A stretch of DNA of 64,000 nt from Haliotis asinina (lineage: Eukaryota; Mollusca; Gastropoda; Lepetellida; Haliotidae): NCBI RefSeq assembly GCF_037392515.1, contig NC_090281.1, positions 54,290,753 through 54,354,752 on the forward strand, written 5' to 3'. The notes below the pieces were generated by a model, which was not told the DNA's origin, did no database searches, and worked only from the letters and a program-made list of their open reading frames with translations. The position numbers and the translations under genes were made by a program. Below are positions 1,488-28,639 of this stretch, one piece after another; within the stretch, counting starts at the first letter, position 1, and the number at the start of each line of letters is the position of its first letter.

Positions 1488-4400
1488 ATGGTGAAGCAGG
1501 TGGGGCTGCTGTCAGCGGGCTGTCAGCCCTGGAACCATGATGTCTGTGACTCCAGTCATGACCGTTTTGCATACTGTGCTACTTTGGCGATATATGTCTA
1601 CCAGGTGTGTCTGCTCTGGGCCCCTCACTCTTACTTCAAATGTGTGTGTCCTTTTACATAACTGCTACTCCATGTGAGATTGTGACCAGTCCTTTGATAA
1701 TGTATAATTCAAAGATATTGCTGTAATATCATAAGGTTTCCCTCCTGCTTTCCCTAAGATTGAATCCGTGTGATAAATTTTGGCAGTCTCCTCTCTGTTT
1801 GCTGTGTCTGTCTTTTTTTTCCCTTAATCTCACCACTTCCTCACATCCCCTCCCCAGTTATCAATTACCAATTCCTGTCATCATAATCAGGTGATCAGTA
1901 GTGCTGATGGTCGCTCACATTATGCAGATTGGTAATCAGAGCTCAGTGATCGATCAATAATCAATTGTAATCGTTAATGCCATCCCAAGTCTCATGTGAG
2001 CAATAACAAGACACAACATAACATTGTACAAACGACACAGACACCCATTTATACCACAAGTAAGATGATCAAGGACAATTCCTGTTGAGACACACCCGAA
2101 TATATTATTTACATTGCAGTTTTTCAAGTCAGGATGTCCTACTTTAACATGAAATAAATCATACTTTACAAAGTGTGATATTATGTTTAATTTTATTTTT
2201 TTATTAGTATTTTTAAATTAGTCTCCTGAGCCCATTGATAATCGCTGATGCAAGAGAATTTGATTGATTGACCAATTATTTGATCTGTGGCTCCAACAGT
2301 TGTGCTCAGTGTGCTTAAATCAGGATATCACTAAGATAACATGTATGGTGCCAAAACTATCATTTCCCCATTACTATTGATATTGCTCAGTCTATATTAA
2401 TAAATCATTGTGTTAAAGATTCTGCAGGTAAGTCTGTATATAAGTTACAAGGTAGGTGAGTCAGACTGCACCAGTTTAGATAAAAAAAATTGATAATGCG
2501 GTTACTTGAATTATAAGGTTAGATAGCATGTTAAACAATGTGCAGCGTAGCAGTGAGCTTCTCATAAGTAATGTCTGCTTATGTCATTTGTATCTGGCTG
2601 AAATCAATTATCACAAGTAAAACATGAAACAGTCTGTTCTCATACCCATAAATCAGCTGTGTAGTTTGCACACAGTTTGATATCAGGGGTCAAATTGATA
2701 TATGTCAGTGCAGTCTGTGCACACAATCTTGTGGCGTTTTAAGCAAGGCCAAGGTTACTGTGATGGGTCATAGGTAATAGTGTACAAGTTGAATTTGCGA
2801 GACACCTTGTAATTTGGAAAGTAGCTGGCACCAATAGGCATTGTCTGCTCAGTAAGCACAAACACTGTTGATATGTTACCTTTGTAACAAACAATCTTGT
2901 AGTCCTTATGGTATGAGCATTAAGAAGAAGAGGCACACTTTGTGTTTTAGAATTACGTAGCTGGATTGGCTAAAGGGACAACCCTTATTACAAAAAAGAC
3001 AAATGCTTGATGTCCTGTTGTAATTGACAAATGTGTGACAAAAGTAGAAAGCTGACTTTTTAGAACTGGGTGCAAGCATTTAAGACCTTGGATAGAAAAA
3101 AGGTCCTGAATAGAGAATGCACTAAATGTCTGAATGCAGTGATATTTAACACTTGTAATGTACCAATGTGAATTCTCCACAATAACCATAGGGACAATCA
3201 CTCCTGATACTTTGAAACCATAATGTTTGTCTCCTGGTGCAAGATGTGAGTAGCCTTGTCCCGATTCCTTGAAATCCCAGTGGGTCACAGTTATGATCAT
3301 GAATGAGGCACTAATGAAGAACATAAAGGGCATGCTGGGCCAAGTGTCTAAGGTGCCAGGTGAGTGATCCAGTAAGCATGGTAAGCTTGAAGTGTCTGGG
3401 TCGAGCCCACATGTGCCCAAGTGTAAAAACATTGGAGTCAGTTTTATGTGCAGACTCTTTTGGTGTTGTCACTACCCCAAGTGGGCAGTACACAACCCTG
3501 TGCACTTAACAGAACCCACAAATACGTGACCAGATGGTGGCCACATGAATATGTGCAAACACCTATTTGTAGGTACAGCAACATGCAGTAATTTAGGACA
3601 AAGTATTGTGGGTATGTGTCTGTCACAGTCCATCCAGTTGTGAATGGGTACCTTGCAAGGATGGGAAAGCCTTTAATGACTCCGTGCATCTAGTGGAGAT
3701 GCATGATCCCCAGGGACTTGAGAATGATAATACGATGTGGTGTTGAGGTTTTATCTGATGATCAAGGGGGAAAAGATGCAAGCACAAGTTGCATGAATGT
3801 GTGCGCTATATAAATATCCTATGATATGATCATAAAGCACTTTCAGATTCCACTGAATATGAAGAAAATGTACTGAAAATAAAGTATAGCAACTCATCTT
3901 TGCGTGGAAGTTCACTTTCAATTAATTTGATATGTCAAAGAACAAAAAATGCATAACATGGTGCAGCCAATATTTTAGCTGTGTAGCGGATTTACTCATT
4001 TAGGCACAGGGTGACACCAAATATGGAATTACAACAAAATAAATCATAACATATGTTTTATGCTTGATATATTTTTAGTAATCATATACAAACATGATGG
4101 AGTCTGCAGTATTAGTAGTGTTCGCTCATCATGCAAAATAGCCTGCTTTCACCCCCACATCTGTACAATGGGTTCAGCCCATTTCTGGTGTTCACCCAAT
4201 ACGGTATTGCTGGAATATTTCAAAAAGAGGCATAAAAGTAAACTCATCCACTCTGTCCTTATTTTCTATATCTTGATTTTTCTAATTATCATTATTGTTT
4301 TGTTATTACTATAGTTATGATTTTTAGACACTAAATGACCACCAACCTTCATGGTGTTAATATTTCAGCTTGACAGACAATTCAACGAATTCAAGCTGGT

Positions 4401-7400
4401 GTCTATTATGTCAGAACACAAAAAGACCATCACAGCCTTCAGTTGGAACCCACGCAACCCAGACATCTTCGTCAGCTCAAGCGCTGACCACAAGCTCATC
4501 GTCTGGAACATTTCCGAACAGAAAGTGGTATCATTGTTGTCAAATACCAAAGAGGCCCCTTGCTCTGTAGGCTGGTGTCCGTATGATACAGATATCATTT
4601 CCTTCATTTCATCCCGAGGGCCCATGTACTCCTGGAACTACAAGTTGGACAATGGGGTGACAGTGGTCAAGGAGGCACAGAGTTTCAACAGTGATGTTTG
4701 TCAGCTGCGGTGGCACCCCAAGAGTCTTGGCAAAGTGGTGTTTGGTCATGTTGATGGGAGCATATCAGTTTGTAACATAGGTAGACTTTCATCCTAGTCC
4801 TTTGGGGTTTAAAGGTAGAACAATTTGATGGGTTTTTATAGCTTGTTTTGGATGCATGATCTGTTTTGAACGTATTTGATGAAATTGTCAAGTACTTACA
4901 AGCATATTCCTCAGGGAGTTGAGAATGCTAAACAACTAACCAGTGCATTATGTGAGCAATTCTGAGTGTACTTTAGGGTGTTGATTTGTCTTGTAATGAT
5001 TATACACATTGTTATTTTTTGTTGCTTCCGCTGCTGCTGTTGCTGCTGCAGCTGCTTTTATTATATGTGGCATCTGTTTTCAGGTTCCAAAAGTAGGAAG
5101 CATGTGTTCAGGCCTGATGACCTGGAGGATTCAGAGGAAGTGGATCCTGTCACGTCACTTGAGTGGGACCCGTTGTCTGCAGAGTACTTGCTGATGGCTA
5201 ACCTCCACTATGGGGTGCGGCTGGTGGACACACAATCCCTGGTGGTCATTATGATGTTCCAGCTCCCTAGTGCTGCAGCTCACATTCAGACTCTATCTTG
5301 GGTCAGTGGGGCACCTGGCATGTTCCTTACAGGGGGTGAGTTGCACTCTTGGATGTTCCTCCAGAGGGAGGTAGACATGTCACCTGGATGTCCCGGAAGT
5401 GGGAGAAGAACAAAGTATCTGGTATCTTACTACAAGGGAAAGTAAAACAGGATGCCTTTTGGTCCCAGAAAGGGCAAGTAGAACAGTGCACCCGCTTGTT
5501 CCTGAAGAAGGACGTATATGAGAGCACCTGCTTGTTCCTTAAGGAAAGCAGAACAAACCTTTAACATCATCCTTGTTTGGTGACAATAGAATGGGACACC
5601 TGCATGTTCCTAAACCTCAAAGAAATCTTTGCACAGACTTGTTTCTTAATGTTTAGATTGGCATGAGCACATGCAGTGTATAAGTAGAAGCTATAAGCTT
5701 CAAGGAAAACTAGCCTACAGTTGATGACATTACTGCTAGTTATGACTGCTGATGATGTTTCAATCACATGTCATGTAGATGAGTAAAAGCAACAGCACCA
5801 ACACTAACTTTGGCTTGATCATGTTCCCAGATTCCCACCATGGCACATTGCGGATATGGAATGTCTCAAAAAGCACACCAATTGAAAATGTCCGCTTGAA
5901 GAAAACAGGGTTCCATGCTCTACAGGTAGTCTACAACCCATCCACAGAAACAAAAGAGGAGAATTCATCATCACGAGAAAAGTTTATATCATCAACCAGT
6001 CAGGCTATGGCGCCATCCAAGACCACCCAGTCTAACTTTGCCCTGCCCCCGGCCAGGCTGGTGTGTACATTCAAGGATGGGGGTGTCGGCTTATATGACC
6101 TAGGCAGGCGGAGGTGGAACTTCTTAAGAGATCAGGTATGTCAGTGCCAGGCTTTAACATAAATAACTCGAAATTGTGTAGAAAAATGCTCATGATGTTG
6201 ATCGCAGGATTGTCTGATTCAGACTTATTTACAGATTGCCGCCAAACTAAAACCACTCACTCACTCACTCACTCACTCACTCACTCACTCACTCGCTTAA
6301 TTAAGAATAGAAAACTGTGAGAGTTCACCAAAATATTCAGAAAGAGTATCAAGTTACATCTGTAGTTGTAGTGAATGTATAATATAGTACTGTTAAGATA
6401 TAGAACCTTTGTAGAGATCCAGGTTAAAGCTGGTGTTCAACCATCCATACTTGATGTTTACATGGCAGCTAGCATCATCATGTGGTAAGGCTCATTTACC
6501 TGTTGTTGTGGGATGATGGGGTAGGCACTTTCTCATCGTGCCTAAGGTATGGGTTTGATCCCATCATGTATTGCCTGTACCTATTGTTCCCAACCACGAT
6601 ATTGCTGGAATATTGCCAAAAACAGAGTAAAACTTAACTCAGTCAATCACTTATTGGTGCACATCATTGTCTTCTAACTGTGTGGAATATGCAAGTACTA
6701 ATATATTTCAGGGACATATGGAGACGATATTTGACTGCAAGTTTAAACCAGATGATCCTGACATGTTGGCCACCGCAAGTTTTGACGGAACAATCAAAGT
6801 GTGGGACATTAATACAATGAAAGCAGTGAGTAAGCAGTTGACATGCAGAGTTATGAGTGCAGGCTATGTTCTTCACTTAGGATCATATTGTATCTTATTA
6901 CCAACTCTAGTTCTGTGTTAGAGAAAGAATGTTGTTTTATGACACAGTTATCAAAATCACAGCTCTGTCATCTCAGCCTAAGCATAAATCCACTGTTTTT
7001 GGTTATTATGAGACAAATCCATACTGTAACATACATCATCATTGATAGCATATATTTATAGGTATAAAGCTTATAACACCAACCTTTTTGGCATCTGGGA
7101 GAAAAGAGAGAGTAACACTAGCGGCAGAATCATTGTATGTGATGTCTTGAGTATGCGTGGCATTGTGACATCAACAACCAGTCATCTTTGAGAAAAGGAA
7201 TTCCTTTCATGAAAACTTCAGACATTCTGACAAAGGCACAGATGGCCCTGTTGTAAAAGTCAAAAGTCACACTTTCCTCTCTGCAGAGTTGTGTACCTTG
7301 TGGACACAAGACAACCACAAGGTATCAATCACAGTTTGCTCCGATTATGTTTCTACGTTTGTCAGCACTATACCACTTAATGCCGTGGGGTGGTAGCCTA

Positions 7401-10400
7401 GTGGTTAAAGTGTTTGCTCGTCACGCCGAAGACTAGAGTTCGTTTACCCACATGCTTGCAATTTGGAAAGCCCATTTCTGGTGTCAACTACCATGATATT
7501 TCTGGAATATTGTTAAAAGCAGTGTAAAACTAAAGTGATAAATTTCCACAAAGACCTACATTACTTATGACTTGTTTAAGCTAACATCTTGTGACTGGGA
7601 TACTGTTGAGTACGGCTTTAAAGCAAGCTCAACTCCTACTCCCTGCCGACAATAATGTCTCTAACATGTGCGCCATGTATGACTTAAGTGTGTTTGTCTG
7701 CTAGGTGTTCTCGTCCATTGGTAATGAGGGTGTGATATATCATATATCATGGGCCCCTGGAAACCTGGACTGTATAGCAGCGTGTACTTCCAAGAATGGG
7801 GTGTTCATATGGAACATCCGGAAAGGGAAGGTCATCAAGAGATTCAATGAGGTGATGAACTGTTTGTTTCTTTGTTTTAGAATGTAATTGTTGTTTACAT
7901 CTGCAGTCACCAATACTCCTACTGTGTAGCAGGATCCTGTGTTTGGACCGGACTGTCCAATGAGTGATACTATGAGGAATAATCAGCGAAAACTGACTGA
8001 TGCTCTTTCAGCCTATTCCTGTTTTGATTATTTGCAGTGAATGATACTTGATACTGACATGATGCGGATTAAATATAACCAATTACTTGCTCCCTTTATC
8101 CCCCAATCACCATTTTCTCAACCTGTTTGTGGTGATATCATGTGACCTCATGCTTTCATGTCAAAGTGAAGAATTACTGTACCTGTGTCTAGGTAGGTTA
8201 TTTTGTTTGCTTTCCATTAATCAAAGCAAATGATAAATCAAGTGTATGTTGTATGGCAGCATGGGAAGAACAGTGTGTACTCAGTCAGCTGGAGCCAGAA
8301 AGACTCCAAGAGGATAATGTCTTGTGGTGCTGATGGATATTGGTAAGATTTCACTTAAGAGAGACATGTCTCATAACATCAGAAAGCTGAGGAATGATAA
8401 TGGCCAGGTATACATTAGTGATCACAGGTTAGAAAATATTATTGTCCACTGACTGAGTCAAGTGAATTTTCATTTTAGGCAGTCAAAATTAGTTCTTTGA
8501 TTGGCTTTCTAGAAGTTGGAGGATGATAACAGAGATGGTATGCAGGATTATGTAAGCTGATTGGAAGATAATTGAAGATGTAACTGTACATTATCCCTTC
8601 TGTCCATCACCTCACTACTGGCTTTCCAATAGTGTCTTTATCACCTGTGTAAACACCTATGTACATCACTTCCTACTTGCTGCCCATCAACATCCTTAAT
8701 CTCTTCTGTATGAAACCATGCACATCTTCTACCGGCTTCCAATGAACCTAATTAATCCTGAATACTGTATGTGTTATATACTTTATATGTCGAAACGTCA
8801 CATACATGAAATAAAGAAGTTGTACATCCATAAATATCGTCCTTATCCTTAATCAGTAATCAGTATTGTCTGTCCCTATTTGTCTGTAAGCCAGTACATC
8901 ATTTGGAGGTCAACATCTTTGGAGGTCCATCTTATAGTGCAAATTCTTGTCCTGTTACAGAGCTGTCTGGTAACAAAGAGTGTTTAGTGTGTCTAACTAG
9001 GTTGCTGTGTTTATTCCACTGACTCTGTTTTTACTTTTAATACTGCTGCATTAATCCTGAGTGAAACTGATAGGATAAAAACAACAGTTTGAATTCTTTG
9101 TTTTGAATGTATTGGATACATATCACCTAGCTTCCTCATACATCACAGACATGTAAACAGTGGGCTACCATTACTGTATTGTTTGTTTAGATCGTTACTT
9201 GTAATCATCATGGTCGCTGTAAATCCCTTTGCATTACAGTAAAGCAGTGTGACTATCTTCATCTTGCATACCCATGTTGTGTCTGTGTTGCCAGCATCGT
9301 GCGGCAAGTGGATGGTCAGGTGGTACAGAAATACCGACATCCTGGGGCTGTGTTTGGTGGAGACTGGAGTCCTAACAACAAGTAGGTGTATACTCCTCAG
9401 TGAGCTGGGAATGAAGTAACTGTAAAGTAGGCACAAGCATGCTTTGTGAAGATGTGATGTCTTTTTTTAAGGTTTTGTTGTTGTTGTTGTTGTTGTTGTT
9501 GCTGTTGTTGTTGCTGTTGTTGTTCTAATTATATCTATGGATTCTCCAGTCATTATATCAGCTTGTTTTTATCAAGTGAGTGAGTGAGTTTAGTTTTATA
9601 CCACTTTTAGCAATATTCCAGCAATTTCATAGCGGATGATTCAGAAATGGGCTTCCCACATTGTACCCATGTGGAGAATTGAACCCATGTCTTCCACGTG
9701 ACGTGTGGACTCTTTAGCCACTAGGCTACCCCACTGGCCCAGTTTTTATCAATAATGACATGGTTGTTTACTAGTTGCATTGTGACTTTCTTCAAGTAAT
9801 ATGTGTGGTTACATCTAAACATTCTCCTGTAAATCATATTGTCTTGCTGTTGTCATATGTACATGCTTAGTGATAGGGTTGTGTGTTAGTCGTTGACTTT
9901 GTTAAAACAACACAAGCATGATCAGTGTATGTATCGGGACATTCTCCTTTAACTCTTGTCCACTTGTTCTTCATAAGAGTGAGTAAGTGAATATGGTTTT
10001 ATGCCGCTTTTAGTAATGTTCCAGAAATATCACGGCTGGAGGCTACCAGAAATGGACCTCACATGTTGTACCCATGTGTGTAATCAAACGTGTGCCTTTG
10101 GCATGATGTGTGAACACTCTAACCACTAGGCTACCCAGTTCTTTATAAGAAGCCATCTTTGTTGTATATGAATTTGATCTTTAGAGCTCTCAGATCTGTT
10201 AACGTTCCCCTTGGTTGTGCTGTTACAGAGATATACTGGCCACTGGTTGTGAAGACAAGTGTGTGAGAGTGTACTACCTGGCTACCAGCAGCGACCAGCC
10301 ACTTCGGGTCTTCACAGGTACACTCACAGTATTCACACTCTGATGCATTGTGAATAATCACATCTGTGGTGCTCAACACCACCCAGTAGGACTCACACAC

Positions 10401-13400
10401 ACACATGATCAAGAACGCATACTCACACAGAGCCTTTCACAACATCAGCTTCATATAACGTTTACATATGTCACTATTATGAGGTAACATGAGACGTGAC
10501 TTACCTGGATGCAAATATCTGCACCCGTGAAAATGCGGGTTATAATTGGTCTTCAGCAACCCATGCTTGTCATAATATCGAAAGAGGCAACTAACAGGAT
10601 CGGATGGTCTGGCTCACTGACATATCATCGCAAATGCAGTCGTCAACCCACCTGCTGTTGATCACTGAATTGTCTGCTCCAGAGCTAATTATTAAAGATT
10701 GCTGCCATATAACCATATTGTTGCTGAATGCAAATCGGTCAATGTGTCAGTCTTACATGTTGCTGACCTTGTTGTACATTTAGATGTATCTGCTGTTCCT
10801 TTCTTCAAGGACATACAGCGAAGGTGTTCCATGTGCGATGGTCGCCACTGAGAGAGGGGATTTTATGCAGTGGATCAGATGATGGGTAGGTTTATTACTC
10901 ACCATATCACCTGACATACAAGTATGATGGTCTTAATTTAGGATTTCTTACTTGGATCGTATAGTGATTCCTCTGGAATTTTCAACTACAATAATATTCA
11001 CAAACTTTCTGCAATATTAACCATATCTTGGATATTTACAGAAAAGTATGAGTTGTGTTCAATGAACATGCTAGATATTTTGAAGAACTATGTTTAATGT
11101 ATCCACAGAAACTTGGTTTGCACTTGATTTGCACCAAAACTTTAACATTATGATATGTTTGTGTCAGCACAATACGGGTGTGGGACTACACACAGGAGCA
11201 GTGTATCAGTGTCCTGTGTGGACACACTGACCCCATCCGAGGTCTGCTGTGGAACACAGAGGTACCATACATGCTGATCTCTGGCAGCTGGGACTATTCA
11301 ATACGGATCTGGGACACACGAGATGGAGCCTGTATAGACACAGTGTTGGACCATGGAGCTGATGTGTATGGTGAGTGAGTGAATGTGATCACCTATCTGA
11401 GCCTCCCCAGAAACACCAGTATGGGCTTAACATACATGTTCTAATGCATCCAGACTTATCAACTGAAATATAAATCCTTTTTGTTCCAGGTCTGACTTGT
11501 CATCCAGAGCGGCCTTTTTTGCTAGCTTCCTGTTCAAGGGATTCCACAGTGAGACTCTGGTCCTTGACCTCTCTCATTCAGCCAATAGAAATACACATAC
11601 TAGCAGGGAAGCCAATCAGTGATGTTGTTGGTGTTTCAGGTAAAGTAAACAGCATCATTGCAGAACTGACCTTAACAAAAACACATCAAGGGAGATAAAT
11701 CTTCTGTAACACATATTGTATCTCCCTTTATGTAGGTGTAGAAAATGGGAGTTTCTGTGGATATTTATAACTGGATGAAGTTGCACCCTGTTTCTTTACT
11801 TTGAATGACACAAGAAACAACAAGTAATTTACATGTACGGTGCTGATGATTGTTACAGACTCTGCCATGTCACTGGGAACGTCACCCATGTTGTCTGGGA
11901 GGGAATCAAAGGAACTGAGACAGCGCTTAGAAAACATGCCAGGGAACGCTATAGCCAATCAGATCAAGTTCTTCTCCAAGTTCTTTGCTGTAAGTGCAAA
12001 AAATACCCAGATACCTGTTGATATCATTTTTTTTCAGTTAAATTGCAGAAAAGAATTTTGAGAAACAGAATCTGCCTGAATAATCTGAACTCATTGTTCA
12101 TTCTAGATGCTTGAAAGTGTCCTCTGAGGGGAAATTTTAGCATCTGAAATGAAGGTAGAAATGTCTGTCCAAATTCATGCTAGACATTAGTGACACTGAA
12201 AACTGAAGTGCTTTGCTCGAAATACCAAATTACTAGTCACTGAATCACCATGTCATAGGACGTCAACAAATCTAAATTGTCTTGATCCTGAATGACATCC
12301 TAACATGCCATGTGTTCAGAGCCAGGAAAATACGATATATTCCATATATGCCAACAAAGACATGAAGTTGAACATTTGATGTGATCTCATGAAACAACAT
12401 TGAATAAGTCTGAATGAGGTCAGAATGATATTTCAGCAACCAACCGGTACCAACAACTTGTGGGAGTTAGTGTCTGTTGTGATGGGGGCCACCAACACTC
12501 TGCTGTCTCCAGAATACAAGACAGGGATCATGCACAGCAAACACCTCACCATGTACAAGGCGGTCAGTTAAACTTTATGAATTTGGTCTTAGATGTAGGG
12601 TGGATGTACATGCCCAGTATGATGTTATTTGAATTTAATTATGTAAGGACACGAGTGCAAAAGCAAGTTTCTTCCTTTGACCAGAGACAAATAATGTTGT
12701 ACTTAGACAATCGCTTTAGAACGATGTTCTGAAATACTTTGGATCAGTTCAACTTTGTTGGCAATTTGAAGCAATCAGTCAGAATCACAGCCTTCCCCTT
12801 TCTGCTGGCAACCCATGAAGGTCCAGGGTAGATTAGGTCTTCAGCAACCCATGCTTGCCACAAAAGACAACTATGCTTGTCAGTAATAGGCGACTACCAG
12901 GATTGGGTACTTGGCTGACACATCGTCAGTTCCCAAATGCGCTGATCAATGCTCATGCTATTGATCGCTGGATTGTTTGGACCAGTTTTGAATATTTACA
13001 GACCGCAGCCATGTAGCTGGAATATTGCCGAGTGTGTGTAAAACTAAACCCATTCAATCACTCACATATTGTGCTGGCAGTCTGATGCCCAGGAGCTGGA
13101 GATGGTGAAGATGTCTCGGCATGGTAGTGGTATCGGCGCCCCCAGCAAAGAGGAGTCTCTGAGGGAGGCAGCCGCTGTCCACATCAAGCTGGGCAACATC
13201 CAGCGCTACTGTGAGCTCATGGTGGAAGTGGGTGAGGTAAGTACAACATACAGAACTACATACAATAGGAAGTCAGTATCTATTTTGATGTGAAATGGAA
13301 CTCAAGGAGTTACGTCTGTCTTGTGTATAGATATACTGTCGAATCATGCAAGGTCAGAGCAAATATAGAATGATGATGCCGGTAAATTGTTACAAAGGAA

Positions 13401-16400
13401 ATTACTGTCTTTTTGTCTTGTTTTTGCATCTGTCATGAAGAACAAGTCTTTAAGAAGCACATAAAATGTATCTCCTGTAATGAGTGTCAAATATACAGCT
13501 CCAGTACATTTGTTGTTTCAGTGGCACAAGGCTCTCATTGCGGCTCCTGGTGTTTCCATGGCATACTGGAAATCTCTTGCTGGAAGGTGAGACATTGCAT
13601 GCTAGTGTGAGACATTCTGTGACTGAATATGTCCGCTGAGGGAAGAGGGATTCTGGGCTATAATTTGTCCCTTGGAACCTCAGATGAAGGCAAGCGTTGA
13701 CCATATAGAAAGGACTTTTCAGGATTGGTAACTTGCTCAGGTGCTGTTATAATCTGGCAACATGGATCACTGTGTATAGTATTATCCTGGCTCAGGCAGT
13801 ATCATTGTTCACAATATTGATCCTGTATTGTCTGTTCCAAGCTGGATCATTGCTCACAATATTGATCACTATATTGTCTGGCCCAGGTTTGGTTAATTAC
13901 AGTCTACCCATTAAATTATGGGAATATTGCTGAATATGTCAACAACAAACTAATTAAAAATTACAGTTCTATTTTAAGTTCTATCATTCTGCTTATCAAG
14001 ATATGCACAGTCTCTGATGTCTGAAGAGAAGGATGATGCTATCCCATTGCTGGTAGCAACCAGTAACAGTGAGGCACTTGTAGACTACTTGTCATCTCAA
14101 GGACAGATGATTGATGCATTACTGACCGCCCAGGCAGCCTGCGAAGGTTTCTACCCACAACATGTAGGGACGTCATCAGCACCTAGCTCTGCTGTCAATG
14201 GATGTGACTCACCCTCAGAAGATCAGCTCAGGTAGGAGAAGTTAGGATGCTCAGCTGACATTTTCTCATGATCAGTCAATTCTATATGCCGGCAGAATTA
14301 GGAGGTTCAGGAACTTCGACAGACTCAGGGCCTGTTTCTTCATGGAAGCGCCCCATGAAGGTCATGGGTTAGAATGGGCCTTCAGCAACCCATGCTTGCC
14401 ATAAAGAGCGACTAAAACTAAACTCACCCACTCACTTCATGGAAGCTTTTGACTACATCTTTAATGGACTAAGCAGAGTAACGAGCTATTAATTGGAAAG
14501 GACTCAGTAAAAAATCATTATGTTTAAAATTTTAATTTTAATTTTAATTTTAATTTTAATGCATGGATGAGTTAGGCCCAAGTAATTCCCCTACTAAACT
14601 GCATATTACATTAAAACTAAGAGTTGTATTATGCTCAGATAGATACGTAGCATGTTCTTCCTTAATTCATTTTAAAATTTTGACCTCTATGAAGAGCAAC
14701 TGATTGTCTGAGAGAAATACAGTATGATGTTGAATGTCTGAATTAACATTCCTGTTCCAGCCTGGTGCGCCATGCCACCACCCAGCTAGCCAAGTGGTAC
14801 TACAACAACGGTCTTCCAATCCTAGCGGCCTGCTGCCATATGGCTGTGGATGACTGCCAGGTACTGTTGCATCATAGAGTGATCCAACCAGATCTGGGTT
14901 AGAATTAGTCTTCAGGAATCCATGCTTGTCATAAGAGGTGACTAACGGGATCCAGTGATCAGACTCGCTGACTTTTTGGACAAATGTCATCCTATCTCAG
15001 TTGTGTAGATATATGCTCATGCTGTTGATCACTGGATTGTCTGGTTCAGACTCTGTTATTTACAGGTTGCTGCCATATAGCTGGAATATTGCGGAGTGCA
15101 GTGTAATACAAGAAACCAACCAGCCAATCATAGCTGATCATATAGTACTTGCTACTGCCATGCCTGGGACTATGCTTTCCTCTTGGCTTAAATTCAGTAC
15201 TGTGTTTGAGGGTATTGCTGATGTTAAAGTGGGTGAATATGATTTGTATAACTCAAGACTAGATCAAGCAGCCACACATATATCTGCACCACATGTACCC
15301 ACGCAGAGAATGCCAATAGTCCTTGACTCCATTTCTACTTACCACATATATTGCAAACTCTGGCAGTTGGTTTAGGAATTTGTGAAGTCATCCAACCTTT
15401 AAGTCCTCTTCCGGATCCCATGTTAGTAATGGTTGCTAGCAAACTAATTTCTATTCTTAATGCAACAGAGAAATCTCATTTATGTTTCATCCTGGTGTAC
15501 ATATGCTCCTATTTGTAAAAACTATAATTCTAAGTAAAAATCCACAGACAAGTAAATATTAGTCCACTAGAAAGTCTTGACAGTGTTATAGCTTGTACCA
15601 ACAGATGATCACTTCATCTCCTTGTTCTGTACGTAACATTTCTGTTATGACCCATTTCAGAGTGCCATGTCAAAACTTATCCAAGGCAACGAACTAGAAC
15701 TTGCAGTTGGGGTGGGCACAGTCCTCCATTCAACACCACAGCACCTCTCTGTAGCCACAGAGCTCCTCTCTCGACGATGTGAGGCACTGGGAAAATGGTA
15801 GGTGAAAGTTATGTGCACATATATTAGCTCTGTTAGCCTGTCAAGTGTCATGGAATCCCTTGTAATGTGTTTGTGTAATCACGGAAGGGTATCTGAAAGC
15901 TTACTTCAGCACAGCCCTGTCAGGATCCTTACTGCCATTGTCTTTTCATGGATTTATTAGGCGGGCAGTAGGGCTGCAACATGTCTCTGTTGAGGTGACT
16001 ATCACACATATCACAAATGTTGGGTAAGAGTGAGTGGTTTTTTTGTTGATTTTAGCAATATTCAAGCAATACAGCAGGGACATCAGAAATGGGCTTCACA
16101 CATTGTACCCATGTAATGATCAAACCCATTTTTCTGGCATGAGGAGCCAGTGGTTTAACCATTATGCAACCAGACCACAACTATTGGGTAAAAATTACAA
16201 CAACAAGTCAGCAGTATACCATGCCATTTAGAAAGTGGTCAAATGAGATTACCACTTGGCTGACTTCCATTTTGTGGATGCCTCAATAGCTGGCAATTTG
16301 CTACCTGACTCTGAGGGTCTGGGTTCAAATCCCAGACGGGACTCAACTCAACAATAGTACTAGAGTCTGTACTTTGCTGAGAAAGTGTAATCGCAAATAT

Positions 16401-19400
16401 CATGTGTTTAACAAGTTATTAGTTGATATATTATCTATAATATGTAGTGAAACAATACCAAAATATTTTCTTTGGCATGTTTTGATCATGTTGACAAAGT
16501 TAATATACCAGACTACTGTCTACTTGAATATGTAAGAGTGTTCACTATATTCCTGGCTTGGATATTTTTCTTTTGCATGTCTCACTATGATGAATATACC
16601 TAAAATTCAGTAGAAACAACTTTTTATAAAATCATGAATGTTTGATTCATTCAAGTAATCATAAATTAACAAACTGAATTTGTGAAGGGATACTGTTAGA
16701 TTCACCAAATTCACAAGTGAATTGTATCGGCTGTAGTTGGCAGTGTATCTGCTTTGTTTAGTATCGCAATGGGTATGGACAAGTAATTCATACGATAATG
16801 TTCACTGAAGTGATTTGAAAGGGGAGACATGTGGTATGTTGTACACATGCCAGGTATTGGTCAGAACTGAAAATTCCTTGTGGTATCTCCAGTGGTACCT
16901 GTTCATTTAAAACTGTCAAGATGAAGAGTGTATACACGTTATATTAGATCCCTTCTCATAAGCAACCATTCAGTTGTAGGAAGTATGTATTGGCATTAAG
17001 ACTGGACTTACCTTGCTAGGGATCTTGGTGTGGAGCTGTTGAAGACTCTTCCAGATAGTGACCTGCTGTTGGCGAAGCTGTGCGCTCGCTGTGCAGCCAG
17101 TATGGATGAGATCAACTTATTACACAAAGCTGTGAGTTAACAGTACAGAAACGTTGTTACATTTTCACAGGGAAATACTTGATTAAGACCAACACTTTAA
17201 GTTCATTATCTGCAGTGCTACAAATCGATTATATATATATTCTCTTTATTCTTAAAGTTTCCTCAGAATTTCAATCAAATAATGAACTTGGATGCCAAAG
17301 AAGCCTTTTTAAAGGGTTGTATTGCTGCATGACTAGGCAATTCTGGATTATGTATAATGAACCAACTATTTTGTGTGAACCACTTATTCATGGTTCACTG
17401 ACTGCCATAGATGCATAGGGTGCAAAGGGTGTATGAATGATCTGAATGAATGCTTTACCCCATGCAAAAATTTATACCCCACTTTGGCAACATACCACCA
17501 TGCATACATGGTAATGTTTTTAAAGGTGACATGACTCAATCAGACAAAAACCTTCTTACACTGAGCTAGGATAATATAGGTTTATATACACACCACATGC
17601 TCCTCTTCTGTAGGCTGGTTTCCCCACAATGGATGGCTGTCTGAGGGAGGCTGAGAAACTGAAAACCAAGATTGACTTTTTTAACTGTGTCAAGTACTAT
17701 CTTATGTCCACCACACCAGAAGCTGGATTAGATGTGGGTCTAGGACATATCAGAAGTGAGTACTGTGTGGTATAAGGTTAACAGAGATAGTCGATGTATG
17801 GCTAGTGTTTTACAGCAGATGTGCTCTGGGAGGAATCATAATGGATAATGGTGAATGCTATCTGTTGCAGGTTGTATGCGGAAAGCAGACTGGACAGCCA
17901 GTGACGTCTTTGACCTCCTGCAGTTGCTTGGGTGTATGAAGACTGAAAAACTGCAGCAACAGAAATGTGAAAAGTAGGTCCCATCTCACAGAGCAAAGCT
18001 GATGTCAGTCATGGGGTAGATGGAATGACGCTAAGCAATAAATGTGATAAAAGCTAGACCTGTAAAATTATGTGACCAAGTTATTGTCACCTTTGATGCT
18101 GCATTGTCAAAAAGAAAAAAATAGCTGATTCCTATTGATGATCTCCATTTTTGATTCATCAAGTAACATATGTTTCAGGAAGCGACTTGAGCTACTTGTC
18201 TACAGTGCTTACATTGGTGGGTTGGTTGCCATTAGGAGGAAGTACACCCCCATTGTTTCAGCTCTGTTCTCTCATGCTATGTGAGTAAACCTTTCACTGG
18301 GTGGTGGCCTGGATGTTTAGCACCACAGTCAGCAATGTTCCAGCTTTATGGTGGTGGTCTATAAATAACAGAGTCTGGACCAGACAATCCTGGCATCAGC
18401 AGCACGTGCCTCAATGCCATAGTTTGGATACAATGATGTGTCCACCCAGTCAGCGAGCCTGACCACCCAACCCCAGTAGTCACCTATTATATGACAAACA
18501 TGGGTTGCTGACGACCAGTTCTGACCCAGGTGTCCTTTCCTAGTGACAGAGGAATTGGGTGGCAGCCTGGTGGTAAGAGGCACTGCAGTCTGCTCAGGTG
18601 GTTCAGTCATCTATGTCAGGATCTGGTTCTGGGTTTGAATCCCTGGTTATGTAAATAGCAATCAGCAGCCTGTTAGCTGCTCTGGCTCTGCATCTTCTGA
18701 CATTACAGCCAAGACATAACTGTAATAATCTTGGTTTTAAGGATAAACTTCAAATTTGGGTCATATATTGGTTAGCAACATTCCGTGTTGGATTCAAGAT
18801 ACAGTCTCGTTTATCTGACATCATCTGTTGCACAGCAAATTGTTGGATTAACGAGGATGTTGGACCAATAATTGAGACTAAATTACCTTTATTCAGTTTG
18901 TTACCCTCAAAAGCGTTGGATAAAGCTGATTGTTGGATAAATGGAGGTCGTTTAAGTGACTTGATTGTATGTATTTATCCGACAGAGATCTGATGTCCAA
19001 GGAAAGGTTGGACCTCCCCTTTACAGAGGCTGACTTGACCTCGGCACTACAGACATGGAAAGATGCTCAGTGTGGTACTGGACAAACTGACCTCAGGTAG
19101 AGGGCCTGTGTAATTGCTAGCACTGTAATCCTGGCTCATCCTGATCATGTATTACCAAAATACATGAAAGTATATGTTCACAGAATTAGCTCACACTTGG
19201 TAGCTATCTTATCATTAATATGCATATACGTTACTTTACATTACAGTGTTGCTAGCAGTGATCATGACTTACATATTCATCACATTACAATTACGAATAC
19301 ATTAAGTCACATATACATTAAATTAGCTTTCTCAAAGTTTTAGATAAAGTTTTACACCATTTCTGAAGTCTTCAGTTGTCTAATAGACAGATCTCCAAAC

Positions 19401-22310: not shown

Positions 22311-22320
22311 ATTAAATTTT

Positions 22321-22498
22321 TAACTTACCTTACCATAGGTCTTATGCATATTACCTCAAGCTTCGCTAGAAGAGATCAGACAGTCGTTGATTCGCCATTC
22401 CCTAGATGGCTACCTCATGTAATCTACGAATGTAGTCACGGAAGTGACGTGATCTCCCCACTCGCGCAAGCGCGAACAATCCAAAAATCACTTTTACT
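22321..22498 (+). repeat. DIRS left inverted terminal repeat
   Basis: Starts TAACTTACCTTACCATAGG and runs to CACTTTTACT. It is the reverse complement of 28,429-28,607, with no difference that I could see over the compared length apart from the outermost bases. Confidence 0.88.
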
Positions 22499-23379
22499 TC
22501 TAGCGTTCGTCTGTTCGGACGTTTTTGGTTCGCTTAGTTTACCTACTTTGTGGTTCAATAAAGTTGTTTCCTCAGGGGTAGGTATGGTTTGTATCCCTTA
22601 GGTGTGCGTGTTAAGGTAAGTTATCTTTTAACTGCACTTACTTTGCTACCTCGTGTTACTTTTTTCTCTCACTTCGGGGTGGGTTCGCCCGCGTCGTGTG
22701 TGAGTGCGGCATGGCGTCCGTGGGGGTATTATATCTTGCTGGTTTTCTCCCTCCATGTGGTTTTCCATGTCGATTAGTATTTTTGCCAGGTTTCACTGCA
22801 TTTATATGTTTTTTCGTGCCACGTTGCGATGTACGCAGGCAACCGTTTTGGTTGTTTGCCCTTCGCTGTCACGAGCTTACGGGCGTGCCTACTTTATAGT
22901 GGGGGTGCGTTGGTGCTGCATTTCTGGTATAGGGGTGTTTTTTTCTACCTCCTAGCGTTGGTTTCAAGGCATTGTTATGTTTGTTTGTTGCACTTAACTG
23001 TGTATATCTCCCCAGTTTTGCACTATCTGCTTGGGGCAGGAATCGGCGAATATCCCCACCCTTGGTGCCCGGATTGTGCGTCTCTAGCCTGCTCTTTTGA
23101 CGGACACTGCCAGTACTGCGAGGTGTTATTGGTGGCGGATTTCGAGAGTCGTCGTTGGGATCTCTGCCGGACGACCCTGACTTACAACCGCCTTCAACGC
23201 CTGTGCCGACGCCTGGGATGGGGCGTTCGTCTGTGACGCCTGTACGCTTGTCCCCGGAACCACCTCGCTCGGATTCCATCGTGGATCTGTTTTCATCCAG
23301 ATGCCTTGTCTCATCCGGAAGTCCAGAGGTTCCTGCGCTCTCTCCTGACGCCCGGTGCTGCTGCGATGCCAGCGTCTCG

Positions 23380-23760
23380 ACATCTCGACACCAGCGCCTA
23401 TGCCAACACCAGCGCCTTTGCTTACGCCAGCGTCTATGCCAGCGCCTGTGTTTGTGCCTATACCTATGTCTACGCCAGGGCCTATGTCTACACCAGTGCC
23501 TATGCCTACGCCAGCACCTATGTCTACGCCAGCGCCAGAGGCTGTGCTTGCGCTAGTGACTACGCCAGCGCCTATGCCTACGTCAGCGCCTATGTCTACG
23601 CCAGCGCCAGCGCCTGTGCTTGCGCCAGTGCCTATGCCTATGCCTACGCCAGCGTCTGTCTACACCAGCGCCAGAGGCTGTGCTTGCGCTAGTGCCTATA
23701 CCTACGCCAGCGCCTATGCCGACGCCGGACCCTATGCCAGCGCCAGCGCCTGCGCCTTAC
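23380..23760 (+). repeat. 18-bp-type tandem repeat, proline-rich coding
   Basis: About twenty imperfect units of the form CCTATGCCTACGCCAGCG. In one frame this gives alternating Pro, Ala/Thr and Met/Val (PAPMSTPAPMP style). It belongs to the gag-like part of the DIRS element and not to a host gene. Confidence 0.85.
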
Positions 23761-26700
23761 CGTATACCCAGGGTGTTGCATACGTTGTCCAGGGAAGAGG
23801 TTTTACAACGACAGTTGGATGAAGGGCGCGCTCGGCGCTTGGAGGCAGAGCGCTCTCGGCGCAGATCGCGCTCCAGGTTCCCTGGGAGTCGGTGATCCTG
23901 TACCCTCCACAGTAGTCTTTGTCGGCGCTCTCGGTCCCCGCTACGCCCTTTGAATGAGGACTCTCGCTTTACTACCAGGTGAAGACGGTGCTTGCGCTCC
24001 CAGTCCATATCACCTCGACGCTCCTCTAGAACTCGGCGTTTGCGGTCGCCGGAACCACCTTGGATCTCGTCCAAGGAATCTGCTGCTCATGCATCGACTT
24101 GGTCTCCTACGTCGCGGCGTGATTCGAATTCCGTTTCCTATGAGGACCTGGAAGAACAGGTTTTTGGCCCGGACTTCGACGAGGAGGCAGGAGGCGACGG
24201 CGATGGTGATGGCACTTAACTACCCTTATCAGTCGTCTTCGAGTGGATTGCTGACAGGTTACCGTACTGCCCTTCACCTTCGGCTAATTCCAACAACCCT
24301 GCAGCACTTCATTTATCGCCGGAGTTACTCATAGCGCCTGATCCTATGGTGGCGGACGCCGTGGCTGTATTAGATGCGGTCTTTGAAAAATTGTCATCTA
24401 ATCCGAATTTCTAAGTGTGTAAATCCAAGAAGTCAGATTACAAGATACACAGCCTGGTTTTCGCGGACAGCGTGGCGGTCTTGGTTGAATCTATGTAGCG
24501 GTTATTGGGCTCCTCGCAGCTCTCTTACAGAGTGCAGGATTCTAAGCGGGTGACCATTGAGACTGAACTCAAGCGGATGCTTAAACCGTTGTCTGCTCTG
24601 GTGTCAGCTACCTCGGCGACGGCGATGGACTTGTCTGAAGACAACGCCTCGAGGATTGATCACCGTACCAGATATTCCTCTGCTGGTAGGCGTGAGACTG
24701 GGTGTCCTTTGGAGGGACTGGCTGCATCCTCGAAGATCCTTACTTTACAATTTGTCTACATATACTTCAAGCGGAGAAAGTTTTCTTTCACGTGCTTTAC
24801 GCATTGTGTCACGAAGATTTTTCGAGACAACTACAAAGTGCCACGCCTAACTACACCTCTTATTATAGAGAGGGCAGCATTTATCTTCGGGGAAAATTCC
24901 AACACATGTACTTGGAAAGCAATTTGTCTACGTCCGTTTCAAGCGGCGGAAGGGTTTTCGCGCGCTTTACTCCTTTAGACACGTGCTCGCCATACAGCAT
25001 GGTTACTGTTAAGCCTACAGGCTAGCAGGGTATCACCGTTTACAAGATTTATGGTGATTAGTTACCTGCTACACCGGTGACGTCACGTCTACATTTTGAT
25101 TGGTCCCCGAGAGACAACGCCCTGCAAAGGATCCCAGGACGTTACATCTACGATCTGATTGGTCATCGAGGGACAACGCCCTGCGCAGAATGTGTTGTTA
25201 TTATTCTAGTGTAAGGAAGTTGTCTGCAGTGACTTAGTCATTTACGATGGAAAGATGTCGTTACACTCTAGACTAGCAGTCTACAGCGGCATTGGATTTC
25301 TCTACTCGGCATAGAGATCCTCTAACAGTAGTCTCAACGCTGCCTATCAGGAAGGCGTGCAGCGATGTATGGCAGTTTCTGATCGGACAGACAGCCAGCT
25401 ATAAATAGACTTCCTTGAAATGTCAACACATTCATAATGAACAGCGTGGTTATTCTGAAGTCGAAGAATGACGCATCTTTACGGCATACAAGATTATCTT
25501 GAGAGGGGTGGACTTCATTATCAGGCTATTAAGTCAGCTTGGATGACTAACTAACTCCGCGGGAGTTGATTCATCACATCGCCGTCCCAGGTTCGGGGGT
25601 CGAAGTTCAAGGCGATGTTAAAAGCAAGCTGTACTCTGTCCGTTATCACTATGTCCGTGATAATGTCTACTCGATTTGCTCACGTCACCTTAGGATATGA
25701 TCAGACGTAGACGTCTACTATTACGTCTATGACAGCGTTTTCTTGATCATGATTTCAAGACAGGTTTACGACTTTGGACGTCTTGACTCCACACCAGTGG
25801 TAGACTCGCCGGTCAATGTTGGAACTTGCATATTAGAGCCGTCATTCAACAACCATCTTTAGGTTGACACGTCTCTACCAGGATTGAGTGCCTATCTAGT
25901 CAAGGAGGTTGCAGCAAGATTCTGGGGGAGTGGAGCTCTATCTCTTCACATCACCCAGTTGAAGATAAGCGGTGATGCATGTCTATTATTGGCTGACAGC
26001 ACCGAGAGACAAGCTACTGATGATCCATTCGGTCAACTCAATAGTAGCTCTCTAGGTAAACAAGGGTCAAGGAGACCACGACCTCTACTACACTTGTCGT
26101 TTCTACCCTTCGACGTGGTCGAGTCTGATCCTCCATATAAAAGCATCTCACACACCAGGAGCCTGCATCTTCATGGCAGACGCCTTATCTCGCCCCCTAT
26201 GTCTATCTCCAACAGAGAATATGTTGTGTCGAGAGACGTTTCAAATATCGGCTTCCAGAGTGGGACCAATTGTTGTACCATCCTCACAATTGGACACTGC
26301 ACCTGGATCCGTCACGGTTTCATCTTTGCGCCTGGACCATCTGTGATAGTCTTGAGGGCCAAGGGGTACTCATCTCAAGTGGCGAAATTAATCACCCTGG
26401 AGCACAGGGTTTCCACTCAGTCACTTTATGGACCTGCAGGCGTGGGCGATCGACACGATCCTGCGACTGCTTTTGGTCGCACCTTGGTGGCCAGCCAGGC
26501 CATGGTTCCCCGACCTGCGTCATCTCGCCAGCGGAGAGTCGTACCAGCTCCCAGATTAGTTACGTCTGCTTCGACATCCGCACAGTTGGCAGCTGCATCC
26601 GGACCCACTGAGATTTCATCTTCACAGTTGGGTCATCTGCAGAAGGCAATAAGAGTTAAGGGCTACTCCTCGTGCGCGGCAAGCGTCCTAGCTTGTACGC

Positions 26701-28267
26701 ATCGAATGTCCACTAGGTCCTTATATGACGACAAGTGGCGCTCATTTGAGAGTTTTTGCGCTCAAAGATCGCAAGACCCTATGACAGCTTCTCCACAGTA
26801 TTTAACGAACTTCCTCCTGTTCCTGCATAACTGCAAGCATCTTAGAGGCAGTACCTTGGGGACTTATCTGTCGGCTTTGAACTCTATTCGATTAAAGCAG
26901 ATAAACAGATTTCCAAGGTACCAGATTTTATTGCGCTACTCAAGGCCTGCAAATTGGAGGACCGGAAAGTTAAGCTTCGTCCTCTAGTTTGGGACCTCAA
27001 CATCGTCCTACAACATCTTAGAGGACCTCCGTATAAGCCTTTAGAGGAAGCCTCCTTCGTGTATTTGTCTCAAAAAAAAAGGACGGTCTTCATTCTAGTG
27101 TTAGCGCTACTGCTGATAGAGCTAGTGGAATTCATGCCCTGGACGTCACGCAGGTTCGCTTGGATCAGTCGAGGCATGGACCAGCCCACTTGGGTCTCCT
27201 GTGAGATTTTGTGGCCAAGAATCAGCTCCCTGGACAGCCAGACAGACTGTTCTCCATTCCTCTGTCATCTGCAGTCTTGGGACAACATGACTTGGAAGAG
27301 GAGCTGCTGTGTCTCGTTAGAGCCCTCAGATGTTACATCCGGAAGTTGGCTTCTAAGAGACGTTCCCCTAAAAGACTGTTCATCCCGCTTTCGACTACCT
27401 GCAAAGGGGAGGTGAACAGGAACACAGTCGCCTGATGGCTTCGATCTACGATCCTAGCGGCTTTTGATGCCAAGCGTCTACCTCATCCAGTGGCAAACAT
27501 CCCACACGAGATCAGAGTGTTGGCATCTACCATGGCCCTCCATAGAAATTGCACAGTGCCACAAACTATGGAAGGCTGCTTTTGGGAGTCGTCGTCTACT
27601 GCCTTCGCTTCCAACTACCTGAGGGACTTGGCAGTTGAGGACATGGAGGGGGAGCTGCTGTGTCTCGTTTGAGCCCTCAGATGTTACATCCGGAAGTTGG
27701 CTTCTAAGAGACGTTCCCCTAAAAGACTGTTCATCCCGCTTTCGACTATCTGCAAGGGGAGGTGAACAGGAACACAGTCGCCTGATGGCTTCGATCTACG
27801 ATCCTGGCGGCTTTTGATGCCAAGCGTCTACCTCATCCGGTGGCAGACAGCCCACACGAGATTAGAGCGTTGGCATCTACCATGGCCCTCCATAGAAATT
27901 GCACAATGCCACAAACTATGGAAGGCTGCTTTTGGAAGTTGTCGTCTACTGCCTTCGCTTCCCACTACCTGAGGGACTTGGCAGTTGAGGACATGGAGGG
28001 ACTACAGTCTTTCAGTCCGTTGGTGGTTGCCCAGCAACTTACCCGGACGTCCGCCCATTAGGTAATAACACTGTTACTTACCGTTGGTCTTAAGATTAAC
28101 CTCACCCTCAGGGTGCGTCGGTTTTTCTTTGGAGTTCCCTTGGGTTACTCTTTGTCCTGCTTCCAGGTTTGTCCTGTGACTGTTGGCATTGGTCTCCCAG
28201 GTTCTCCTAATGCATGTGCACTGGTTGCTGAGGGATGGTCCTCCGGAGTCCACACCACCATCCATCT

Positions 28268-28362
28268 GTCGAAGCCATATGCATAAGACCTATGGTAAGG
28301 TAAGTTAAAAATTTATTAAAATCTAAATATTTTAGATATTTAAATACTTACCTTACCATAGG
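28268..28362. repeat. DIRS internal complementary region
   Basis: The left half (ATGCATAAGACCTATGGTAA and on) is complementary to the element's left end at 22,311-22,352. The right half (AAATACTTACCTTACCATAG) is complementary to its right end at 28,590-28,637. Read on the minus strand it equals right end joined to left end, as DIRS replication through a circle requires. Confidence 0.85.
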
Positions 28363-28428
28363 GCGGTGACTCCCTCCCAACGCTGGATGCTCCTCCCCAC
28401 TCTGGACTCTTCGGACCTTCCTGTTGCC

Positions 28429-28639
28429 AGTAAAAGTGATTTTTGGATTGTTCGCGCTTGCGCGAGTGGGGAGATCACGTCACTTCCGTGACTACATTCG
28501 TAGATTACATGAGGTAGCCATCTAGGGAATGGCGAATCAACGACTGTCTGATCTCTTCTAGCGAAGCTTGAGGTAATATGCATAAGACCTATGGTAAGGT
28601 AAGTATTTAAATATCTAAAATATTTAGATTTTAATAAAA
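28429..28639 (-). repeat. DIRS right inverted terminal repeat and outer end
   Basis: Reverse complement of the left repeat up to about 28,607. The unique outer segment TATTTAAATATCTAAAATAT follows to about 28,639 and is matched by the internal complementary region. Confidence 0.85.

What the first reader, a model, noticed from the sequence alone, without database searches (positions are those of the whole stretch)
12803..13080. SINE inserted exactly at a 3' splice site, which its target duplication preserved
TGCTGGCA stands before the SINE (12,803-12,810), preceded by a fine polypyrimidine tract. It stands again after the SINE (13,072-13,079), directly before the final G of the exon 15 acceptor. 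Removing the SINE and one repeat recreates a normal acceptor, CCTTCCCCTTTCTGCTGGCAG. The tract now lies about 260 nt upstream of the exon, and the SINE's own tail (ACTAAAC and CACTCAC) must provide branch point and pyrimidines. This is a natural case of a SINE replacing core splice signals of a conserved gene without, apparently, destroying it.
Basis: partly seen in the sequence, partly recalled or inferred. Interest (0 to 1): 0.72.

Follow-up and report, generated by a model that had tools for sequence, protein, structure and literature searches.

The report
Old SINE wedged into splice acceptor
A short mobile element jumped into the very end of an intron in a mollusc-like gene, and because the jump copied a few letters of the target and the element's tail resembles splice signals, the next exon still seems to have a usable start, much as in a known dog coat-colour mutation but here apparently old and tolerated.

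Summary
TGCTGGCA stands at 12803-12810, directly before a SINE starting at its family's 5' end (12811), and at 13072-13079, one base before an in-frame exon (13081-13236) of a WD40 gene (WDR17 by recall). The repeat extends to 11 nt with 10 matches; 21 of 26 other copies show target duplications in the same test. Removing SINE plus one repeat gives CCTTCCCCTTTCTGCTGGCAG; 2 of 508 decoy AGs in this gene's introns score as high on a generic matrix. The present acceptor has the gene's median pyrimidine count (10/16) but a low matrix score (2 of 20 others clearly lower); branch-like ACTAAAC and CACTCAC lie in the SINE tail. The SINE is 15% from consensus, so old. The only other copy of the exon found in the genome, in a near-identical block that is probably the second haplotype, also holds the SINE: no empty site, and no RNA. 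Closest precedent: the dog merle SINE, whose 15-bp duplication contains the acceptor. This is an apparently tolerated, old member of a known kind; splicing through SINE-supplied signals is inferred, not shown.

The parts
   Evidence: in-frame chain of 21 exons
12563..13080 (+). intron carrying the insertion, 518 nt (249 nt before the insertion, by inference)
12791..12802 (+). old polypyrimidine tract CCTTCCCCTTTC, now separated from the exon by 278 nt
   Evidence: fused acceptor scored
12800..12810 (+). 5' target-site duplication; perfect core TGCTGGCA 12803-12810
   Evidence: 11 nt, 10 matches; 0 of 200 shuffles
12811..13065 (+). SINE, sense orientation; starts at the family's 5' end, ends in a degenerate (ACTC)n-type tail; 85.0% identical to consensus
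13043..13049 (+). ACTAAAC, branch-point-like; candidate branch A at 13047, 34 nt from the exon
   Evidence: unchanged from the SINE consensus
13059..13065 (+). CACTCAC, contains YTNAY; candidate branch A at 13064, 17 nt from the exon
13066..13068 (+). ATA between tail and repeat; unexplained filler, or decayed tail or repeat
13069..13079 (+). 3' target-site duplication; perfect core TGCTGGCA 13072-13079, now the acceptor's -9 to -2
13080..13080 (+). final G of the acceptor AG; left outside the duplication, so the 5' copy reads GCAA and has no AG
   Evidence: identical in the second copy

Best explanation
A sense-oriented SINE inserted, by the target-primed reverse transcription usual for SINEs, into the 3' splice site of a WDR17-like gene, one base short of the end of the intron. 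The target duplication (8 perfect bases; 11 with one mismatch) re-created the acceptor's -9 to -2 next to the remaining G, so the exon boundary and frame were kept. Because the G lay outside the duplication, the upstream copy lost its AG, leaving no second strong acceptor there. The old tract and branch point were moved 269 nt away. The SINE tail, ACTAAAC plus (ACTC)n, is AG-free, 75% pyrimidine in the repeat and branch-like, and took over as branch point and tract. Shown: insertion, duplication, fused acceptor, open exon. Inferred: use of the tail as branch point and tract, and inclusion of the exon.
For: Family 5' end and tail in 26 other copies; 21 of 26 have a significant target duplication, of which 19 start no more than 2 nt after the tail. 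Fused acceptor: 14/16 pyrimidines and generic score 5.0; 2 of 508 decoy AGs reach that score and 2 of 508 reach 14 pyrimidines. Present acceptor: 10/16 pyrimidines against a median of 10 in the 20 other acceptors, 46 nt free of AG before it, ACTAAAC and CACTCAC with candidate branch A 34 and 17 nt from the exon. Exon open, phase 0-0, identical in both genomic copies. Over 3198 exon sites the two copies differ by 15 synonymous and 5 amino-acid substitutions plus one in-frame 3-nt indel, and the second copy keeps AG and GT at all 21 exons. The SINE is 85.0% identical to consensus (23 of 229 non-CpG sites differ), so the arrangement is old.
Against: No RNA evidence and no empty-site allele or species. 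On the generic matrix the present acceptor scores -0.2: 16.5% of decoys score as high, the 20 other acceptors have a median of 1.86, and only two of them are clearly lower (-0.8 and -3.5; one ties). A matrix from the gene's own 20 acceptors reverses the ranking (present 2.2, fused -2.5; 4.5% and 29% of decoys as high), though it also gives 6 of the 20 real acceptors negative leave-one-out scores. The tail is no better conserved than the body (6 of 47 against 27 of 207 sites differ), so there is no sign of selection on it. The exon is a multiple of three, so skipping would keep the frame. That the exon is conserved across animals rests on recall, not on a search hit (one search gave WD40-type domains, no close homologue).
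Confidence: 0.75

Rival explanations
1. The insertion is as described (so this overlaps with the best explanation), but the new acceptor is leaky: the exon is skipped in part of the transcripts, giving an in-frame protein shorter by 52 residues, or a cryptic AG in the SINE is used and yields transcripts with stop codons.
For: The exon is 156 nt, phase 0-0; skipping keeps frame. Six of the 15 AGs between the old tract and 13080 were tested as cryptic acceptors and all six lead to in-frame stops. The old tract still stands and the first AG after it (12820) is 10 nt past the old junction. The generic score of the present acceptor is near the bottom of the gene's acceptors. Dog FAM161A and merle SINEs near acceptors cause skipping or cryptic use.
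Against: The present acceptor has ordinary pyrimidine content and 46 AG-free nt. AGs 12820 and 12826 score poorly (-3.0, -2.2).
Confidence: 0.35
2. The distant old branch point and tract (before 12803) are still used, with the spliceosome passing over the SINE to the AG at 13080.
For: The old tract is intact; distant branch points exist in other genes (recalled).
Against: 15 AGs lie between the old tract and 13080 (12820 to 13032, list), so a first-AG rule would select one of them; the tail offers nearer branch-like sites.
Confidence: 0.06
3. The repeat is a chance match and the SINE inserted without duplicating the acceptor; the acceptor was never interrupted in this way.
For: Six bases lie between tail and the 8-bp repeat (three before the 11-nt repeat), whereas 19 of the 21 other copies with a significant repeat have it within 2 nt of the tail; 5 of 26 copies show no significant repeat at all.
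Against: 0 of 200 shuffles reach the score of the 11-nt repeat; the 5' copy abuts the family's 5' end; the fused site ranks high as an acceptor on the generic matrix.
Confidence: 0.04

Closest known systems
Dog merle SINE insertion at the intron 10/exon 11 boundary of PMEL (PMC7349775, passages seen)
   Same: SINE inserted into a 3' splice site; 15-bp target duplication carries the original acceptor; original branch point pushed away; original exon boundary still present.
   Different: Merle SINE is in reverse orientation with a poly(T) stretch, polymorphic, and shifts splicing to a cryptic acceptor with a visible phenotype. Here the SINE is sense, with an (ACTC)n tail, old, present in both copies found; effect on splicing unknown.
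Dog FAM161A SINE 15-16 bp upstream of exon 5; the same paper cites the HCRTR2 narcolepsy SINE 35 bp upstream of an acceptor (PMC3976383, passages seen)
   Same: SINE insertion within tens of bases of an acceptor, displacing the putative branch point.
   Different: The FAM161A exon is skipped and this is associated with retinal disease.
Introners (PMC9860276, passages seen)
   Same: Mobile element whose target duplication supplies or shares splice-site bases.
   Different: Introners create new introns; here a pre-existing intron seems to have been enlarged and its 3' end rebuilt.
BLOC1S2 MIR plus AluSp (PMC6822395, passages seen, some from the abstract)
   Same: SINE-derived branch point and 3' splice site.
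   Different: There the SINEs make a new lineage-specific exon; here they would serve a coding exon of the gene's main frame.

Membership tests
SINE (non-autonomous, LINE-mobilised element) | short repeated element with a fixed 5' end | tested here: met
   26 other copies start at ACCCGTGAAGG or point variants of it, about 260-280 nt; they were picked from the best hits to the query, so not a random sample
SINE (non-autonomous, LINE-mobilised element) | target-site duplications of variable sequence | tested here: met
   21 of 26 other copies at 10 of 200 shuffles or fewer; in two of the 21 (L031, L040) the repeat lies 9 and 14 nt past the tail and is doubtful
SINE (non-autonomous, LINE-mobilised element) | simple-repeat 3' tail | tested here: met
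   (ACTC)n-type tail in 26 of 26, often short or impure (read by eye)
SINE (non-autonomous, LINE-mobilised element) | pol III promoter / small-RNA-derived head | tested here: inconclusive
   Rfam gave no tRNA, 5S or 7SL match in two copies at E up to 5; pol III boxes were not scored
merle-type SINE at an acceptor | target duplication includes acceptor bases, branch point displaced | tested here: met
   duplication includes -9 to -2; everything upstream of it, so any old branch point, is displaced by 269 nt
merle-type SINE at an acceptor | altered splicing (cryptic acceptor use or skipping) | not testable with these tools
   no RNA data
introner | insertion creates a new intron | tested here: inconclusive
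   old polypyrimidine tract upstream of the SINE and a donor 248 nt before it argue that the intron predates the SINE; no empty-site genome to prove it

The most novel reading that the evidence does not exclude
The family's tail, ACTAAAC followed by (ACTC)n, is a portable 3' splice-site module: sense insertions that bring an AG in the target duplication make usable acceptors, so this genome tolerates, and may regularly recruit, SINE-built acceptors, this WD40-gene exon being one that is now constitutive or alternatively spliced. In 26 other copies the first AG after the tail has pyrimidine content like real acceptors (median 10 against 10; decoys 8) and a longer AG-free stretch (43 against 31 and 10); their matrix scores lie between (median -2.1 against 1.86 real and -4.1 decoys), significantly below real acceptors.
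Probability: 0.2. Interest if true: 0.62.

Novelty: new member of a known kind. Interest (0 to 1): 0.4.

Why it matters
The SINE insertions at acceptors that I saw described in dogs were found because they disturb genes. This one looks old and sits in a gene with an open frame in both copies, so it suggests what lets such a hit be tolerated: the AG split by the duplication boundary, and a tail rich in branch-like and pyrimidine sequence. It makes a testable prediction: other sense copies of this abundant SINE should sit at acceptors more often than antisense ones.

Tried and rejected
Plasmid collection search of the region: no match. Rfam on the window: nothing at gathering score; on two SINE copies only a poor SCARNA7 hit on the opposite strand, taken as chance. 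A seeded gene finder without peptide guidance gave a poor gene model and was replaced by a guided chain. A splice matrix from the gene's own 20 acceptors was judged overfitted but is reported. Polymorphic SINEs between the two copies of the locus, as a direct empty/filled comparison, were looked for in the aligned part: none clean (the 402-nt difference at -2507 takes in only part of a SINE). The probe has about 170 nt of repeat that its partner lacks; not followed up. A search for stronger conservation of the tail than the body found none. PDB search of the C-terminal part gave one hit at E 0.74, taken as chance.

Full report
What is there. The window is G000:C2:54290753-54354752 of a 1.143-Gb genome; abalone (Haliotis) is my guess from the recalled tail motif.

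The gene. A guided chain of 21 exons from 4377 to 18280 reads 1066 codons without a stop. Pfam finds WD40 repeats (PF00400, E 7.2e-37, among 43 families). The name WDR17 is recalled and comes from no database hit. The exon after the SINE is 13081-13236, 156 nt, phase 0-0. The chain starts inside the gene and probably lacks a WD40 exon between 6135 and 7705 (recall), so 'exon 15' is plausible but not verified.

The SINE. A genome search scored 40 of 5620 candidates and gave 42 matches. Besides the window copy and its duplicate, 38 of these are long; I fetched and aligned 26 of the 38. They begin at ACCCGTGAAGG or point variants and end in an (ACTC)n-type tail. The window copy and its duplicate are 85.0% identical to the consensus of the 26; the 26 are 88.4-96.0%, a sample biased to good matches. 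Outside CpG the window copy differs at 23 of 229 sites. The insertion is therefore old relative to those copies; I give no date.

The duplication. Testing each copy's 5' flank against the sequence after its tail, 21 of 26 other copies pass at 10 or fewer of 200 shuffles and 5 do not; the window copy passes with 0 of 200. Its best repeat is 11 nt with 10 matches. Of the 21, 20 have repeats of 10-17 nt and 19 have it start no more than 2 nt after the tail; L031 and L040 lie 9 and 14 nt past it and are doubtful. In the window copy ATA remains between; a longer duplication that has since decayed, or filler, would both explain it.

The acceptor before and after. With generic (recalled) metazoan frequencies the fused acceptor scores 5.0 and the present one -0.2; of 508 AGs inside this gene's introns 0.39% (2) and 16.5% score as high. 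The 20 other acceptors have a median of 1.86; two are clearly lower than the present one (-0.8, -3.5) and one ties. Pyrimidines at -20 to -5: fused 14/16, present 10/16, other acceptors median 10, decoys median 8. A matrix from the gene's own 20 acceptors disagrees: present 2.2 (4.5% of decoys as high), fused -2.5 (29%), but it also scores 6 of 20 real acceptors below zero when each is left out, so I weigh it little. Branch-like sites: AACTAAA with A at 13047, 34 nt from the exon; CACTCAC with A at 13064, 17 nt. There are 46 AG-free nt before the acceptor AG.

Why the exon could survive. The duplication ended one base before the G. The upstream copy therefore reads GCAA and has no AG. Had it kept an AG, the tract there could have pulled SINE sequence into the message; six of the 15 AGs between the old tract and 13080 were tested, and all six give in-frame stops. 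This is inference from sequence. Skipping the exon would keep the frame and remove 52 residues.

The second copy. A block at C2:50.93-51.03 Mb matches the window and its flanks at 98.0-99.85% in the main pieces. A probe at 54.1 Mb finds its partner at 50.77 Mb (97-99%); one at 54.9 Mb has no near-identical second match among those listed. A pair of repeat hits at 49.317 and 52.641 Mb has nearly the same offset, which hints at a block of 1.7 Mb or more. This looks like an uncollapsed second haplotype, but a true duplication is not excluded. The exon was found at exactly these two places, identical, both behind the SINE. The block copy has 14 nt more inside the SINE. Over 3198 exon sites the two differ at 20 (15 synonymous, 5 amino-acid changes, counted by me from the list) and by one in-frame 3-nt indel; introns differ at 89 of 10678 sites; AG and GT are kept at all 21 exons.

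How surprising. In 114 kb around the window, 9 matches cover at least 240 of 274 consensus bases. The coincidence needs no targeting; survival is the informative part.

Known relatives. The dog merle SINE in PMEL is flanked by a 15-bp duplication that contains the original acceptor (PMC7349775, passages). FAM161A and HCRTR2 SINEs lie 15 and 35 bp from acceptors and are reported with aberrant splicing (PMC3976383, passages). Introners show target duplications that share splice sites (PMC9860276, passages). The search for WDR17 together with Haliotis returned no paper; among the titles listed (several of them capped lists) I saw no report of this locus. That is limited to the open-licence library.

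Verdict. It is a tidy, apparently tolerated and old example of a known kind. The claim that the SINE now supplies branch point and tract is the simplest reading and untested.

Noticed in passing
G000:C2:50.93-51.03 Mb against 54.27-54.38 Mb (L010-L025): The window has a second copy about 3.3 Mb away on the same contig, 98.0-99.85% identical in the main pieces, probably an uncollapsed haplotype in the assembly.
   Followed up: partly
22317-28629: About 6.3 kb with perfect 176-nt inverted repeats near its ends (22323-22498 / 28429-28604) is present in the window and absent from the second copy: a DNA-transposon-like insertion; its target duplication was not resolved.
   Followed up: partly
9575-9731 and 9978-10136 (minus strand), also 4205-4260 and 6600-6655: Other repeats share about 50 nt of 3' tail (CTGGAATATT...TAAAACTAAACTCACTC) with this SINE but seem to have a different body, as expected if two families borrow one LINE's 3' end.
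   Followed up: no
6172-6270, 10523-10731, 13845-13933, 14922-15109, 18315-18501: Other SINE pieces of the family lie 35-79 nt from exon ends of the same gene; the SINE studied is the closest, 16 nt.
   Followed up: no
12560-12568: The donor of the intron carrying the SINE is GCG|GTCAGT, with C at +3; generic score 2.2, with 5 of the 20 other donors lower.
   Followed up: no
13091-13092: A further AG (GATGCCCAG) lies 12 nt inside the exon, in frame, generic score 1.5; it could act as a minor acceptor dropping four residues.
   Followed up: no
23383-23755: An array with copies mostly 18 nt apart (13 overlapping 99-nt matches); coding status not tested.
   Followed up: no
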